64,000 bases of DNA from Armatimonadota bacterium (GTDB lineage: Bacteria; Armatimonadota; Fimbriimonadia; Fimbriimonadales; Fimbriimonadaceae): positions 102,511-166,510 of the forward strand of contig JACRPN010000005.1 in the NCBI GenBank assembly GCA_016223145.1, read 5' to 3'. The notes beneath the pieces are model-generated. The model did no database searches. It was given only the letters and a program-made list of their open reading frames with translations, and was not told the origin of the DNA. Position 1 is the first letter of the stretch. Every line of letters begins with the position of its first letter. A program made the translations under genes and the position numbers. This document shows positions 17,440 to 60,025 of the stretch, piece by piece.

Positions 17440-18645
17440 TCACACCTTGCTCAAGGCTCTCTTTTCCGCGACACGTCGGAACCCCTCGATGGCCTTCTCC
17501 AGTTTGGGATCGTCAATGTCGGCATGGAACACGAGCCTCAGGCGGTCTGGCGCCGGCGGGAGCGCCAACACTCCGACATCCTTTAGGTCGCTCATCCAAG
17601 CAGGGCCGTCGTCGACATAAACCAGCACCATGTTGGTCTGCACCCGCTCCCAATCGACTTTGACTCCGGGCAACTCGCTCAGGGCCTGGGCCATCGCACG
17701 CGCGCGGCGGTGATCGTCGGCCAGGCGGTCGATCATCTTGGTGAGGCTGACAATCCCACAGGCCGCCAGAATGCCGGCCTGCCGCATCGCACCGCCCACC
17801 CTCTTGCGCCACTGTCGCGCTCGGGCAATGAACTCCGATGGGCCGCAAAGCACCGAGCCAACTGGCGAACTCAACCCCTTTGACAGGCAGATGCTGACGG
17901 AATCGACATAGGAGCAGATCTCGCGGGCCATGGCGCAGGGACCGAGGTCGCAGGTCCGAGGTCCGGGGTCGGAAGGAACAAGACCGGAATCCCTTCGCCT
18001 CTCGCCTCTCGCCTCTCGCCCGATGGCTTCTCCATTGTGTCCTTCGCCCTTCGCCCCTCGCCCTTCGCTGATCCCCACCGCCGCATTGAAGAGCCTCGCG
18101 CCATCCAAGTGCACTGGAATCCCGTGCCGATCCGCAACCGCGCGATAGGCTCTCATCGCCGAAAGCGGAAGGATCGTGCCCCCGGCCCTGTTGTGTGTGT
18201 TCTCAAGGCAAATGAGCTTTACGCCAGGCGTGTGGATCGAGCGCTTGGTGATGTGCCGCTCGACGTCCTCCGGGTCCATGACCCCAAGCTTGGAAGGGAG
18301 GGTCCATGTGAGGACCTGCCCAAGTACCGCCGGGCCGCCGCACTCATAGTAGAGCATGTGCGCTTCCTCTTCAAAGAGCACCGCGTCTCCGCGCTCGGTC
18401 CAGCTTGGGACGGCGATTTGGTTGCTCATCGTGCCGCTGGGCACATAGACGGCGGCTTCCTTGCCGGTTCGCTCACAGGCGATCCTCTCGAGTTCGAGCA
18501 CCGTCGGCTCATCGCCAAGAACATCGTCGCCGAGGGCGGCTTTCATGATCGCCTCGTACATCTCGGGCGTCGGCCGCGTGACGGTGTCGGACCGCAGGTC
18601 GACGATGTCTTTCTGGGCTTCGGGTACGTTGAACTCGGTAGCCAT
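17440..18645 (-). CDS. ltaE: Threonine aldolase (low specificity), carrying an in-frame repeat insertion
   Basis: 401 residues of the fold-type I PLP family; the usual length is about 340-350. DLRSDTVTRPTPEM (16-29), GDDVLGDEPTV (39-49), ENTHNRAGG (148-156), HLDGARLFNAAVGIS (179-193) and the PLP lysine in SICLSKGL (Lys256) are present. It cleaves threonine/allo-threonine to glycine and acetaldehyde. Between NAAVGIS and MAREICSYVDS lies a stretch of about 46 residues (194-239) rich in Gly, Arg and Glu, encoded by intergenic-type repeat sequence. Related enzymes run straight across this site. The frame is preserved, so the enzyme may still fold with an exposed loop. Confidence 0.88.
   Translation of the reverse strand: MATEFNVPEAQKDIVDLRSDTVTRPTPEMYEAIMKAALGDDVLGDEPTVLELERIACERTGKEAAVYVPSGTMSNQIAVPSWTERGDAVLFEEEAHMLYYECGGPAVLGQVLTWTLPSKLGVMDPEDVERHITKRSIHTPGVKLICLENTHNRAGGTILPLSAMRAYRAVADRHGIPVHLDGARLFNAAVGISEGRGAKGEGHNGEAIGREARGERRRDSGLVPSDPGPRTCDLGPCAMAREICSYVDSVSICLSKGLSSPVGSVLCGPSEFIARARQWRKRVGGAMRQAGILAACGIVSLTKMIDRLADDHRRARAMAQALSELPGVKVDWERVQTNMVLVYVDDGPAWMSDLKDVGVLALPPAPDRLRLVFHADIDDPKLEKAIEGFRRVAEKRALSKV
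17929..18066. repeat. Repeat modules inserted in frame in ltaE
   Basis: About 138 bases inside the aldolase gene consist of short iterated motifs: CTCGCCT units (17998-18018), TTCGCCC units (18041-18066), and a GGTCCGAGGTCCGGGGTC-type stretch (17952-17974). The TTCGCCC unit also makes up intergenic repeat tracts in the nuo operon (59170-59188, 59855-59945). It encodes aldolase residues 194-239. Confidence 0.75.
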
Positions 18646-36087: not shown

Positions 36088-36534
36088 GTGCCCCAATCGC
36101 TCTCCAGGGTTCTGGTCCACATGGTCTTCAGTACGAAAGACCGAGCCCCAGTCCTTTCAACCGTGATTCGGTCCGAACTCCACTCCTATCTCGGTGGCGT
36201 CCTCAAAAATCACGGATGCATCCCCATCCAGGTTGGAGGTGTCGAGGACCACGTTCACCTGTTGTTCGGCCTCTCACGAACCATCAGTCTGGCAGCTGCC
36301 GCCGAACTCCTGAAAACAAGTTCTTCACGATGGATCAAGTCAAAAGGACTATCCGGTTTCGCTTGGCAAGCAGGCTATGCCGTGTTCTCGGTAGGGATGA
36401 GTGAGACGGACCGAGTTCAAGCATACGTTCTTAACCAAGAGGAGCACCATCTTAGGCGCTCCTTTCAGGATGAACTCCGGGCTCTGCTGCGCGAGTCAGG
36501 GGTGGAACCCGATGAGCGGTATCTGTGGGATTAG
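36088..36534 (+). mobile_element. REP-associated tyrosine transposase (RAYT, IS200-like Y1)
   Basis: 148 residues from the GTG at 36088 (MPQSLSRVLVH; a TTG two codons earlier is an alternative). The first strand carries RVLVHMVFSTKDR, the HUH-type motif is VEDHVHLLFGLSR, and the catalytic Tyr lies in VQAYVLNQEEHHLRRSFQ. The C-terminus VEPDERYLWD is the family ending. RAYTs nick and join single-stranded REP hairpins by a 5'-phosphotyrosine. All parts are intact. The gene is bracketed by REP unit 1 copies in inverted orientation, so it is likely the enzyme that spread this REP. Confidence 0.9.
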
Positions 36535-39836: not shown

Positions 39837-39843
39837 GCGTCCC

Positions 39844-39933
39844 GTCGCGCATCGCCCTTCGCTCATCGCTGCCATCTTCCCCCTCACCCGTTTCGCTGCG
39901 CTCAACGACCTCTCCCCAAAGGGGCGAGGTGGG
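39844..39933. repeat. Composite repeat tract between convergent genes
   Basis: The left part (39844-39870) is CGCGCATCGCCCTTCGCTCA-like, the same units as in the nuo operon spacers. The right part (39879-39933) is an inverted copy of the SPELTDL element, with CGACCTCTCCCCAAAGGGGC and GAGGTGGG. It fills the whole gap between the isomerase-like gene and the permease gene. Confidence 0.7.
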
Positions 39934-39939
39934 AATAGC

Positions 39940-42198: not shown

Positions 42199-42618
42199 GT
42201 GCCCAGAAAGCCCCGTAGGGGCGGCTTCCCCGACCGCAAAGAAGAGCTGCATAAGTACATCTCAGGGATCGTGAGAAACCAGGGTCAGAAGCTCATCGCG
42301 ATCCACTGCATGCCCGACCATGCCCACATTCTCATCGGTCTCAAGCCCAGCAAGTGCCTATCCGACCTTGTTCGGGAGATCAAGACGGGATCGTCCAACC
42401 ACATCAACGAGAATCGGTGGGTCCGGGAGCACTTTTCTTGGCAGGAGGGGTTTGGAGCGTTTTCCTATGCCCATGCAGACCTGGGAAACGTCGTGCGGTA
42501 TATCGAGAATCAGGAGGAGCATCACAAGAAACGGAGCTTCCGTGATGAGTTTCTGGCGTGCCTGAAGGAGTTTGAGATGACGTATGAAGAGCGGTATCTC
42601 TTTGAGGAGCCGATTTGA
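42199..42618 (+). mobile_element. RAYT (IS200-like Y1 transposase), 5'-truncated
   Basis: 139 residues if the GTG at 42199 is used. From DRKEELHKYISGIVRNQGQK the sequence follows the IS200-like family closely: PDHAHILIGLKPSKCLSDLV (HUH site), WQEGFGAFSYAHADLGNVV, catalytic Tyr in RYIENQEEHHKKRSF, and EMTYEERYLFE at the end. The family's first roughly 20 residues (a beta strand of the type TYTQLYIHIVFAVKGRQ) are missing. Their place is taken by codons of the left REP (MPRKPRRGGFP). It is therefore probably inactive on its own or defective. Confidence 0.8.
42210..42225. repeat. REP type 2, left copy
   Basis: GCCCCGTAGGGGCGGC forms a 5-bp hairpin with a GTA loop. It is an exact inverted copy of 42623-42638. 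Confidence 0.85.
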
Positions 42619-43483: not shown

Positions 43484-45097
43484 ATGTCTTTGGCCGATGG
43501 CGTCCTCTCACAACTGATACCCAACCTCCCCGCTCACCTGGGCAACGACCTGAAGGTCTATTCCCCGATTGATGGCTCGCTGCTCGCCACGCTGAGGCTG
43601 GACACCGCCGAAGAGATCGAAACCAAGATCCAGCGGGCTACCCAGGCCTTTGAAACCTGGCGAGACGTCCCTGCCCCGGTCCGAGGCGAACTGGTTAGGA
43701 TCTTCGGCCAAAAGCTCCGCGACAAGAAGGAGCTTCTGGGGCGGCTGGTGACCCTCGAGAACGGCAAAGTCCTTAGCGAAGGGCTCGGCGAAGTGCAGGA
43801 GATGATCGACATCTGCGATTTCGCTGTGGGGCTCTCGCGCCAGCTTCATGGGCTCACCATCGCCAGCGAGCGCCCGAGCCACGTGATGCAGGAGAATTGG
43901 CTCCCGCTCGGTCCCGTGGGCGTGATCAGTGCGTTCAATTTCCCCGTCGCGGTGTGGGCCTGGAACGCGGCGCTCGCGTGGGTCTGTGGCGACCCGGTCC
44001 TCTGGAAGCCCAGCGACAAGACCCCGCTCTGCGCGCTGGCCTGCCAGGCAATCTTCGAGGAGGCGCTAAGTGAATTTACGATTGACGATTTACGATTGAC
44101 GAACGTTGCGGGCGGCCTGAGCCAGATCCTGATGGGGGGCCGCGCGACTGCGGGGAAGGCCCTTGTGGAAGACCCGAGGATCCCCCTCGTGAGCGCGACC
44201 GGCAGCACCGCCATGGGCCGCGCAATCGCGGGAACGATCGCTCAGCGGTTCGGCCGGACGATCCTGGAGCTCGGTGGCAACAACGCCATCATCGTCACCC
44301 CGACCGCCGACCTTGGCGTGGCGCTCCCGAGCATCGCCTTTGGAGCGGTGGGAACCTGTGGGCAGCGGTGTACCAGCACCCGCAGGCTGATCGTCCACGA
44401 GAGTATCGTGGACGAGGTCTGGGCCAAGCTGAAGTCGGCTTACGCCAGCATCACGGCAGGCAAGATCGGCGATCCCCTCGACCCGAACACCTTGGTTGGT
44501 CCGCTCATCGACGGCAAGTCGTTTGACGATATGCAGTACGCGCTCGAAGAGGCGAGGAAGGATGCGCTGGAGGTGTTTGGTGGGGAGCGAGTTTCGCTGA
44601 ATGGTGCTCGGGTGGCCAGGTATTCAGGCGATCTGGCGCAAACTCCGACTGAACCTGAACACCCATCACCTGAACACCTGAACACCAGCTCTGACGCCTA
44701 CTACGTCGCACCGGCGCTTGCCCGCATGCCCAGGCAAACCGCCATCGTCGAGCACGAGACTTTTGCGCCAATCCTCTTTGTCCTGAGCTACCGCACCTTC
44801 GACGAGGCCTGCGAGATGCAGAACGCGGTGCCCCAGGGCCTGAGTTCGGCGATCATGACCGGCGACGTGCGCGAGGCGGAGCTTTTCAAGCGGCGCTCAG
44901 ATTGTGGCATCGCCAACGTGAACATCGGCACGAGCGGCGCTGAGATCGGCGGGGCCTTCGGAGGCGAAAAGGAGACGGGAGGCGGAAGAGAATCCGGTTC
45001 CGACTCTTGGAAGCAGTACATGCGCCGCCAAACGAGCACGACGTATTACGGCTATGAGCGCCCGGCCCTGGCGCAAGGCGTTCAGTTCGACCTATAG
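43484..45097 (+). CDS. Aldehyde dehydrogenase, ALDH7/aminoadipate-semialdehyde type
   Basis: 537 residues; the family is usually about 500. The NAD site and catalytic core are intact: VGVISAFNFPVAVWAWNAAL, GDPVLWKPSDKTPL, TILELGGNNAIIV (Glu) and GTCGQRCTSTRRL (catalytic Cys). The ending NIGTSGAEIGGAFGGEKETG with SGSDSWKQYMRRQT is specific to the antiquitin (ALDH7A1) branch. Two unusual segments are encoded by repeats: SEFTIDDLRL after residue 195, and about 30 residues before DAYYVAPAL. It oxidises a semialdehyde, probably in lysine or related catabolism. Confidence 0.88.
   Translation: MSLADGVLSQLIPNLPAHLGNDLKVYSPIDGSLLATLRLDTAEEIETKIQRATQAFETWRDVPAPVRGELVRIFGQKLRDKKELLGRLVTLENGKVLSEGLGEVQEMIDICDFAVGLSRQLHGLTIASERPSHVMQENWLPLGPVGVISAFNFPVAVWAWNAALAWVCGDPVLWKPSDKTPLCALACQAIFEEALSEFTIDDLRLTNVAGGLSQILMGGRATAGKALVEDPRIPLVSATGSTAMGRAIAGTIAQRFGRTILELGGNNAIIVTPTADLGVALPSIAFGAVGTCGQRCTSTRRLIVHESIVDEVWAKLKSAYASITAGKIGDPLDPNTLVGPLIDGKSFDDMQYALEEARKDALEVFGGERVSLNGARVARYSGDLAQTPTEPEHPSPEHLNTSSDAYYVAPALARMPRQTAIVEHETFAPILFVLSYRTFDEACEMQNAVPQGLSSAIMTGDVREAELFKRRSDCGIANVNIGTSGAEIGGAFGGEKETGGGRESGSDSWKQYMRRQTSTTYYGYERPALAQGVQFDL
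44073..44103. repeat. Repeat module in frame in ALDH, site 1
   Basis: Two copies of ATTTACGATTGACG in tandem, reading SEFTIDDLRL in the protein. Base composition is clearly poorer in GC than the flanking gene. Confidence 0.75.
44654..44688. repeat. Repeat module in frame in ALDH, site 2
   Basis: CCTGAACACCCATCACCTGA then ACACCTGAACACCAG: three near-copies of CCTGAACACC, translated within TPTEPEHPSPEHLNTSS. Related dehydrogenases have a short loop here. Confidence 0.7.
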
Positions 45098-52579: not shown

Positions 52580-52969
52580 GGGCTTCCTTTGAGGGCTCGA
52601 TCTCGCCTCACTGCATAGGGTGCAAGAGGATGCGCGAGGGTGAATGAGGGTGAGAGGGAGAGGGGGCGCGGGCGAGTGAAGGGATGATGGGATGAGGAGT
52701 GGGACCCTCCCTTGGTTTTGCGAATCGAATCGGAGGCAAGTTTGGGGGTGAGAGGCAATGCACCCTTTGTGGCTCCGGCCGCCTTTGTGTCTTTGTGAGA
52801 GGTAACTATGGTCGCCCACACGGAACTGTTTTTCTTTGGGCAGGCTTGGCGGTTACCGTTCCCCTCATCCCATCATCCCATCATCCCTTCTCTAGATCCA
52901 GTCCCAAACAACGACAAAGGGCAGGTTCCTGAAAGCAGGAACCTGCCCTTTGTCCCTCGGTCCCTCCGT
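52580..52969. repeat. Repeat-filled intergenic region with ATCCCATC units
   Basis: No gene seen in 390 bases. GAAGGGATGATGGGATGAGG (52678-52697) and its inverted, expanded form CCTCATCCCATCATCCC (52863-52879) form a distant inverted repeat. GAGGGTGA-type repeats occupy 52637-52657. The right end is the 18-bp hairpin at 52914-52953. Confidence 0.6.
52914..52953. terminator. Perfect 18-bp hairpin after the large secreted protein gene
   Basis: Arms ACAAAGGGCAGGTTCCTG (52914-52931) and CAGGAACCTGCCCTTTGT (52936-52953) with a 4-base loop, 17 bases after the minus-strand stop at 52970. It has the same geometry (18-bp arms, 4-base loop, no long U-tract) as the hairpin at 15072-15111. Confidence 0.65.
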
Positions 52970-59051: not shown

Positions 59052-59189
59052 CGATTGCGGATTGCGGATTTCGGATTGCGGATTTTGGGTCGCGATGGGC
59101 GATGCGCGATGCGCGATTGGGACCCGGCCATCCTAATGCCTAATGCCCTAATGCCTAATGCCTTAACGCCTCGCCCTTCGCCCTTCGCT
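59052..59189. repeat. Repeat tract between nuoH and nuoJ
   Basis: Four module types in order: GCGGATT units (59057-59084), GCGATGCGCGAT units (59091-59117), TAATGCC units (59133-59164), TTCGCCC units (59171-59188). No reading frame of note. The tract stops directly at the nuoJ Shine-Dalgarno (AGGAG at 59195-59199). nuoI would be expected here. Confidence 0.8.
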
Positions 59190-59205
59190 TCTCTAGGAGT
59201 TCCCA

Positions 59206-59721
59206 ATGCCCTTTGAGATGACCGGCCAAAACATGATGGCGCTACTGCTCGCGCTGATAGCCATGGCGAGCTCCGCCGGCGTCGTGCTTATCGGCAACGC
59301 CATTCGATCGGCGCTCTGCCTGGTCGCCAGCTTCTTCTGCCTCGCGTTCCTCTATTTCATCCTGAACGCCGAGCTTCTCGGCATCGTGCAAATCGTGGTC
59401 TACACCGGCGCGATCATGGTGCTGTTCTTGTTTGTGGTCATGCTGCTTGCCATTGGAGGGCCGGACGCCCTGACTGAATCGAGAGACCTGAAGCGGCTCT
59501 TGGCGGCGCCGTTCGGCGCGGCCCTGTTCGTGCTCGTGATGATGCAGGTGGTCCTACCGCTCCAGGCGGTCGCGGAAGTCGAGCCTTTAGCGAATGCCGG
59601 CACGCCCGAAGCGCTCGGCAAGGTGCTCTTCACCCAGTATTTCTGGCCCTTTGAAGTGGCGAGCATCCTGCTCCTGATCGGCATCGTCGGCTCCATCCTG
59701 CTGGCGAAGAGGAAGATATGA
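59206..59721 (+). CDS. nuoJ: NADH-quinone oxidoreductase subunit J
   Basis: 171 residues with five hydrophobic helices. ALCLVASFFCLAFLYFILNA, ELLGIVQIVVYTGAIMVLFL and FVVMLLAIGG are the conserved block of helices 2-3 (including the pi-bulge region). The start has AGGAG at 6 bases. The gene is isolated from both nuoH and nuoK by repeat tracts, while all other junctions in the operon overlap or are a few bases apart. Confidence 0.94.
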   Translation: MPFEMTGQNMMALLLALIAMASSAGVVLIGNAIRSALCLVASFFCLAFLYFILNAELLGIVQIVVYTGAIMVLFLFVVMLLAIGGPDALTESRDLKRLLAAPFGAALFVLVMMQVVLPLQAVAEVEPLANAGTPEALGKVLFTQYFWPFEVASILLLIGIVGSILLAKRKI

Positions 59722-60012
59722 GGGGAGAGGCATTAGGCGTTAGGGCATTGGGTGTTGGGTGTTGGGTGATGGGTAGTCAGGTGGACCCCGGTTCCCCATC
59801 GCGCATCGCGCATCGCACATCGCACTCTGGCATCAGGGCATTGACCCCGCCTTCGCCCTTCGCGCTTCGCCCTTCGCCTCCGAAGTCAGGCTTTGAGGCA
59901 TTAGGCATTAGGGGGACCGTATCCCCTTCGCCCTTCGCCCATCGCCCTTCGCGGAATGTAATCCGCACTTCGCGTTTCTCAATCCGCAATCCGCAATCGC
60001 CAATCCGCAATC
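59721..60012. repeat. Repeat tract between nuoJ and nuoK
   Basis: About 290 bases of short units: GCATTAGG/GGTGTTGGGTGTTGGG (59730-59770), ATCGCGCATCGCGCATCGCA (59798-59822), TTCGCCC (59853-59876, 59927-59950), GGCATTAGGCATTAGG (59897-59912) and AATCCGCAATCCGCAAT (59980-60012). The final unit runs into the nuoK Shine-Dalgarno CCGGAGG. No protein-like frame. Confidence 0.85.
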
Positions 60013-60025
60013 CGGAGGTCCTGCG

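What the first reader, a model, noticed from the sequence alone, without database searches (positions are those of the whole stretch)
59052..60012. A shared vocabulary of 7-14 bp repeat modules in and between genes
Units such as TTCGCCC, GCGGATT, GCGATGCGC, TAATGCC, GCATTAGG, AATCCGC and ATCCCATC are strung together in variable order in intergenic tracts (39844, 52678, 59052, 59721), and the TTCGCCC unit recurs inside ltaE (18041). Different modules side by side, each iterated two to five times, look like a mosaic grown by slippage or by an unknown copying process instead of one transposon.
Basis: partly seen in the sequence, partly recalled or inferred. Interest (0 to 1): 0.7.

Follow-up and report, generated by a model that had tools for sequence, protein, structure and literature searches.

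The report
Inserted convergent short-repeat tracts
This bacterium's chromosome is sprinkled with inserted tracts of 7-9 letter DNA words, G-rich running inward from the left and C-rich on the right, which have wedged between operon genes and even in frame inside enzyme genes; such repeats are known elsewhere, but this layout hints at an unidentified two-ended DNA-growth process.

Summary
In 1.26 Mb of this genome, tandem arrays of 7- and 8-base words (some 9) lie in spacers at about 110 per Mb, far above chance and almost only at those unit lengths. The words recur genome-wide, yet two tested ones are absent from both same-genus genomes; other array-bearing relatives use other words, and some relatives have none.

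(1) The tracts are insertions: the nuoJ-nuoK spacer is 307 bp here and mostly 10-56 bp in relatives; an ltaE-like gene, argS and gcvPB carry in-frame inserts made of the words. (2) They are convergent: G-rich arm left, C-rich arm right (24:2 array pairs here, 9:0 inside genes, 28:2 in loci from other phyla), mostly with different words on the two arms.

Plain slippage predicts neither. RT, Ku and PolX are absent here; RAYT-type genes are present but do not follow the arrays across relatives. Best guess: break repair in which both 3' ends grow by iterative copying of existing tracts and are then joined. That mechanism is inferred. Known relatives are cyanobacterial STRRs and the G-rich heptamers of Xanthomonas and Nostoc, where a similar orientation was reported.

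The parts
59053..59117 (+). G-rich left arm in the nuoH-nuoJ spacer: (GATTGCG)n then (GCGATGC)n, starting directly after the nuoH stop codon
59118..59131 (.). switch point between the arms (TGGGACCCGGCCAT)
59132..59190 (+). C-rich right arm: (CCTAATG)n then (TTCGCCC)n, up to the nuoJ ribosome-binding region
59722..59774 (+). first dyad of the nuoJ-nuoK spacer, G-rich arm: GGCATTAGG-type then (TTGGGTG)n
59797..59878 (+). first dyad, C-rich arm: (CATCGCG)n then (TTCGCCC)n
59896..59913 (+). second dyad, G-rich arm: (GGCATTA)n; followed by switch GGGGACCGTATCCCC
59924..60014 (+). second dyad, C-rich arm: (TTCGCCC)n then (AATCCGC)n
17929..18072 (+). in-frame tract inside the threonine-aldolase-like gene 17440-18645 (-): GGTCCGA-type arm left, TCGCCTC/TTCGCCC arm right; codes about 48 extra residues not in any solved aldolase
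44074..44102 (+). 7-bp array (ATTTACG/ATTGACG) inside the L-piperidine-6-carboxylate dehydrogenase gene 43484-45097
44653..44686 (+). 8-bp array (ACCTGAAC) inside the same gene
39841..39869 (+). short C-rich tract CATCGCG/TTCGCCC between genes
52678..52700 (+). degenerate G-rich 8-base words (GGGATGAT type), ending in GTGGGACCC
52860..52887 (+). C-rich 8-bp array (TCCCATCA) at the other end of the same convergent-gene spacer

Best explanation
Shown: the tracts are insertions built from a lineage-specific vocabulary of G-rich 7-9-base words. The unit is a convergent dyad: G-rich tandem words running inward from the left, a short switch sequence, then C-rich words (G-rich on the other strand) running inward from the right. 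Dyads sit in spacers of all gene orientations and, where the frame survives, inside genes. Inferred: each dyad records repair of a two-ended DNA break in which both 3' ends were lengthened before joining. A 3' end with a G-run anneals to a C-run of an existing tract elsewhere, copies one word, slips back or switches template, and repeats. This gives tandem growth with a period set by the spacing of C-runs, mosaics when the template changes, and a shared but drifting vocabulary. Joining the two G-rich tails leaves G-left/C-right with different words on the two sides. The enzyme would be an ordinary host polymerase. No function for the cell is required.
For: De novo insertion: nuoJ-nuoK distance 307 bp against mostly 10-56 bp in 28 relatives; extra residues in the ltaE-like gene coincide with the tract; 27 inserts of at least 10 aa in this genome against 12 in relatives over 206 gene pairs, many made of the words, in argS and gcvPB among others. 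Convergence: G arrays in the left and C arrays in the right half of spacers, p 4.5e-6; G-then-C against C-then-G pairs 24:2; inside single genes 9:0 at the loosest threshold; 28:2 in loci from other phyla. Arms usually carry different words and do not fold better than shuffles. Vocabulary lineage-specific. No RT, Ku or PolX.
Against: No break, intermediate or new insertion was observed. No close strain was available, so empty sites are known only from distant relatives at protein level. In relatives the pair counts are small (13:3 at the loosest threshold, about even at stricter ones), and two Verrucomicrobia genomes show no positional rule. About a third of the dyads here have related words on both arms, which an inverted-duplication process would also give (my count). 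Why the copied strand is always the G-rich one is not explained.
Confidence: 0.38

Rival explanations
1. Ordinary replication slippage (the published explanation for heptamer repeats): short seeds grow and shrink by polymerase slippage, with 7 nt favoured by the stretch that contacts the polymerase.
For: Arrays are tandem with mutated copies; unit length is nearly fixed; heptamers are the commonest long repeat in many genomes and slippage is the proposed cause.
Against: Does not explain why the same words recur at many loci, why they appear inside genes at positions where relatives have nothing, or why neighbouring arrays are G-then-C. Slippage probably still adjusts copy number.
Confidence: 0.17
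2. Selected regulatory elements: G-rich 3' trailers and C-rich 5' leaders kept for quadruplex, R-loop, Rho or translation effects.
For: Tracts abut stop and start codons; a similar placement was read as regulatory in Xanthomonas and Nostoc, where the consensus repeats form quadruplexes in vitro.
Against: The same G-then-C order holds inside genes on either strand, 9:0, where no leader or trailer exists. Words are lineage-specific and missing from sister genomes whose nuo operon is intact without them. Many words have only GG. No terminator signal; folding no better than shuffles.
Confidence: 0.15
3. A non-autonomous mobile element (MITE- or REP-like, moved by RAYT or another transposase) with repeat-rich arms.
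For: Dispersed insertion-like behaviour in spacers and genes; this genome has 12 Y1_Tnp matches; Methylobacter dyads in three loci share similar centres.
Against: Words, arm lengths and centres differ from dyad to dyad; shared non-periodic 18-mers belong to other dispersed elements; Y1_Tnp does not follow arrays and is absent from array-rich G014. Target duplications were not tested systematically.
Confidence: 0.12
4. Telomerase-like addition of repeats by a reverse transcriptase with an RNA template, as in DRT10.
For: Short G-rich words running inward from both sides look like fused repeat-capped ends; DRT10 makes tandem-repeat DNA from an RNA template.
Against: No RVT_1 match in this genome, 97% complete; the words are many, not one; RT presence does not significantly follow arrays.
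Confidence: 0.04
5. Assembly or binning artefact.
For: The genome is a 23-contig draft.
Against: Tracts lie on at least 12 contigs, keep reading frames in conserved genes and have counterparts in relatives and other phyla.
Confidence: 0.02

Closest known systems
G-rich heptamer repeats GGGAATC of Xanthomonas and GGGGA(T/C)T of Nostoc (PMC4692102)
   Same: Seven-base G-rich units at well over a hundred loci per genome, mostly between genes, within 50 bp of stops on the coding strand or of starts on the non-coding strand; 70-75 convergent pairs per Xanthomonas genome
   Different: There one word per genome; here a vocabulary of many words of 7, 8 and 9 bases strung together, mostly different words on the two arms, and in-frame insertion into conserved genes demonstrated against relatives
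STRR heptamer repeats of cyanobacteria and TAACTGA repeats of Beggiatoaceae (PMC4679880)
   Same: Intergenic tandem heptamers, sporadic among lineages, lineage-specific word, origin unexplained
   Different: TAACTGA is not G-rich and single-word; no convergent dyads described in what I read
Rickettsia palindromic elements
   Same: Short repeats inserted in frame inside conserved genes (family named from general knowledge; papers listed not read)
   Different: Those are conserved palindromes; these are tandem words without a conserved fold
REP/BIME sequences with RAYT
   Same: Short dispersed intergenic repeats; RAYT-type genes are present
   Different: No conserved palindrome, and arrays do not follow RAYT presence
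DRT10 and telomerase (PMC12632851)
   Same: Synthesis of short tandem repeats
   Different: Needs a reverse transcriptase and template RNA; no RT found here

Membership tests
G-rich heptamer LSSR / STRR class | tandem units of about 7 bases at many loci | tested here: met
   8- and 9-base units occur too
G-rich heptamer LSSR / STRR class | mostly intergenic | tested here: met
   103 of 142 strict arrays are non-coding although non-coding DNA is 14%
Xanthomonas-type G-rich heptamers | convergent placement relative to flanking genes | tested here: met
Xanthomonas-type G-rich heptamers | a single consensus word | tested here: not met
   101 words in 223 runs, in roughly ten families (families are my grouping)
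Xanthomonas-type G-rich heptamers | quadruplex formation | not testable with these tools
   some words have GGG, many only GG; needs spectroscopy
REP/BIME moved by RAYT | conserved palindromic sequence | tested here: not met
   four tracts fold no better than shuffles
REP/BIME moved by RAYT | presence follows a RAYT gene | tested here: not met
   Y1_Tnp is broader than RAYT
MITE | conserved terminal inverted repeats and target-site duplication | tested here: inconclusive
   no shared ends apparent in 26 listed array pairs; duplications not tested systematically
Telomerase/DRT10-like synthesis | reverse transcriptase gene | tested here: not met
   no RVT_1 match in the genome
Ku-dependent end joining | Ku gene | tested here: not met

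The most novel reading that the evidence does not exclude
A general, reverse-transcriptase-independent process in many bacterial phyla lengthens both 3' ends of a DNA break with short G-rich words copied from a lineage-specific stock and then joins them. It leaves convergent repeat dyads as scars, spreads the stock like a dialect, and remodels spacers and proteins.
Probability: 0.15. Interest if true: 0.9.

Novelty: new variant of a known kind. Interest (0 to 1): 0.62.

Why it matters
Why 7-base repeats dominate in so many bacteria has been left to a guess about polymerase contacts. The convergent order, seen here in spacers and inside genes and in loci from several phyla, together with clean in-frame insertion into enzymes such as arginyl-tRNA synthetase, says that the repeats arrive as two-sided units and do not simply grow at random seeds. 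That makes the mechanism testable by strain comparison and break-repair assays, and points to a source of new spacer and protein sequence.

Tried and rejected
RT, Ku, Y1_Tnp (RAYT) and PolX as drivers: absent here and/or not tracking the arrays; Y-family polymerase is present in nearly all genomes of the same family and so uninformative. Folded hairpin or terminator: not better than shuffles, no excess of terminator signals. Rfam: no match in the window. Module order between strains: no close strain is held; the two own words tested are absent from the same-genus genomes. Orientation in single relatives: too few pairs. The nuoH-nuoJ distance was not decisive, as relatives vary widely.

Full report
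Observation. In 463 kb, exact 7-mer recurrence at lags 7 and 8 is about 9 and 6 times expectation, and strict tandem runs are nearly confined to units of 7, 8, some 9, and multiples. In 1.26 Mb the catalogue gives 223 runs with G-strand words such as GGGCGAA, GGTCCGA, GGCGAGA, GCGCGAT, GGATTGC, GGTTTTCA/GGTGTTCA, GGGTGAGT, GGGACGAA, GGGGCATT/GGCATTA and GGGATGAA. Most read as a G-run followed by four to six mixed bases.

Insertion into spacers. NuoH, NuoJ and NuoK were located in relatives by tblastn. The nuoJ-nuoK distance is 307 bp here; in 28 relatives it is 10-56 bp except for values of 77, 108 and 217, and the 77 partly reflects an unaligned NuoK start. The extra DNA here is the tract. 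The nuoH-nuoJ distance (159 bp) is not decisive, because relatives vary. Co-directional spacers of 120-1200 bp make up 37% of pairs here and 8% in a 100-kb sample of the same-genus genome G001, which has no arrays in that sample.

Insertion into genes. The threonine-aldolase-like gene at 17440-18645 (-) aligns to solved aldolases in two blocks, query 13-191 and 240-394, against structure residues 12-190 and 195-352. The roughly 48 extra residues are encoded by the tract at 17929-18072. Over 206 gene pairs with relatives this genome has 27 inserts of at least 10 aa against 12 in the relatives, and many consist of the words. Affected genes include gcvPB (NF003346), argS (TIGR00456, above its cut-off although split into four stretches), L-piperidine-6-carboxylate dehydrogenase (NF050084, just above cut-off) and a molybdopterin oxidoreductase. 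Gene calls are from my own simple codon-usage caller, so borders are approximate.

Convergent dyads. In spacers, arrays G-rich on the + strand lie in the left half and C-rich ones in the right half (45/19 against 20/48, p 4.5e-6). The skew difference between halves holds for co-directional, convergent and divergent gene pairs, while coding segments show none. For arrays closer than 200 bp, G-then-C exceeds C-then-G 24 to 2. One exception has what reads as a tRNA gene between its arrays (my reading of the printed sequence), and the other is the border of two successive dyads in the nuoJ-nuoK tract. Inside single genes the count is 9 to 0 at the loosest threshold and 3 to 0 at the strictest, on either gene strand. 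Within a gene there is no stop or start codon to explain the order, which favours the way the tract is made over selection for gene-end signals. The two arms mostly carry different words (about two thirds of pairs by my count), and the single strands do not fold better than shuffles, so most are not hairpins copied from one arm.

Relatives. Two own patterns (GGGCGAAGGGCGAAGG and CAGGTNTTCAGGTNTTCAGG) are absent from both same-genus genomes; the first is found in 3 of 100 relatives, the second in none. A neutral pattern of GG every 7 bases shows that period-7 arrays exist in many relatives: G014 921 hits, G015 567, G090 274, G089 226, G000 180, G055 155, G094 135, G008 126, G019 106, and zero or one in many sisters. 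Words found de novo in G019, G014, G008 and G013 mostly differ from the own ones. So the process is sporadic and the vocabulary is local.

Other phyla. This choice has no built-in preference for orientation. Pairs closer than 200 bp are G-then-C 28 times and C-then-G twice. Some organisms contribute several pairs; by my count about 17 organisms show G-then-C and one shows only the reverse. Two Verrucomicrobia genomes with many GGGCGAA arrays show no positional rule, so the rule is not universal.

Literature. Heptamer repeats are a known class. In Xanthomonas and Nostoc, G-rich heptamers sit within 50 bp downstream of stops on the coding strand or upstream of starts on the non-coding strand, and two xanthomonads have 70 and 75 convergent pairs (PMC4692102). 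Slippage tied to the stretch contacted by the polymerase has been the proposed cause. I found no description of multi-word dyads or of demonstrated in-frame insertion, but most subscription papers could not be searched.

Enzymes and conclusion. This genome has no RVT_1, Ku or PolX match; Y1_Tnp is abundant (12 matches) but does not follow arrays; Y-family polymerases are nearly universal in the family. The most economical model left is break repair by general polymerases, with iterative copying of existing tracts onto both 3' ends. Insertion and convergence are shown; the break, the copying and the joining are inferred.

Noticed in passing
window 39879-39935; also inside genes, e.g. G000 C8:175885-176811 and C8:260733-261755: A different dispersed element (CCCTCACCCG..CTCACCGACCTCTCCCCAAAGGGGCGAGGTGG) that also inserts in frame into genes, giving peptides like GEVGERSEPGEG.
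   Followed up: partly
window 36103-36438 and 42235-42513: Two of the 12 Y1_Tnp (RAYT/IS200-type) matches of this genome lie in the window, the highest count listed among the relatives searched.
   Followed up: partly
window 52704-52740; 11 loci in 1.26 Mb for its core: A dispersed hairpin-like element (AACCCCTCCCTCAGTTTCGCTTCGCAAAACCAAGGGAGGGGCT type) that often lies at the centre of the dyads.
   Followed up: no
window 52918-52955: Perfect-looking inverted repeat CAAAGGGCAGGTTCCTGAAAGCAGGAACCTGCCCTTTG between converging genes.
   Followed up: no
G000 genes gcvPB, argS and others: A 9-base coding word (CTGTCCGAC type) gives SDLSDKSD-like peptides in several unrelated enzymes.
   Followed up: no
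L206, L263, L271: Methylobacter dyads GGCTAAA..TTCGCCC at three loci share a similar centre ending in AATGCAAGCTTTT, suggesting a dispersed family there.
   Followed up: no
L186, L282: In two Flavobacteriales loci the centre between the arms looks like an intrinsic terminator (stem followed by a T run).
   Followed up: no
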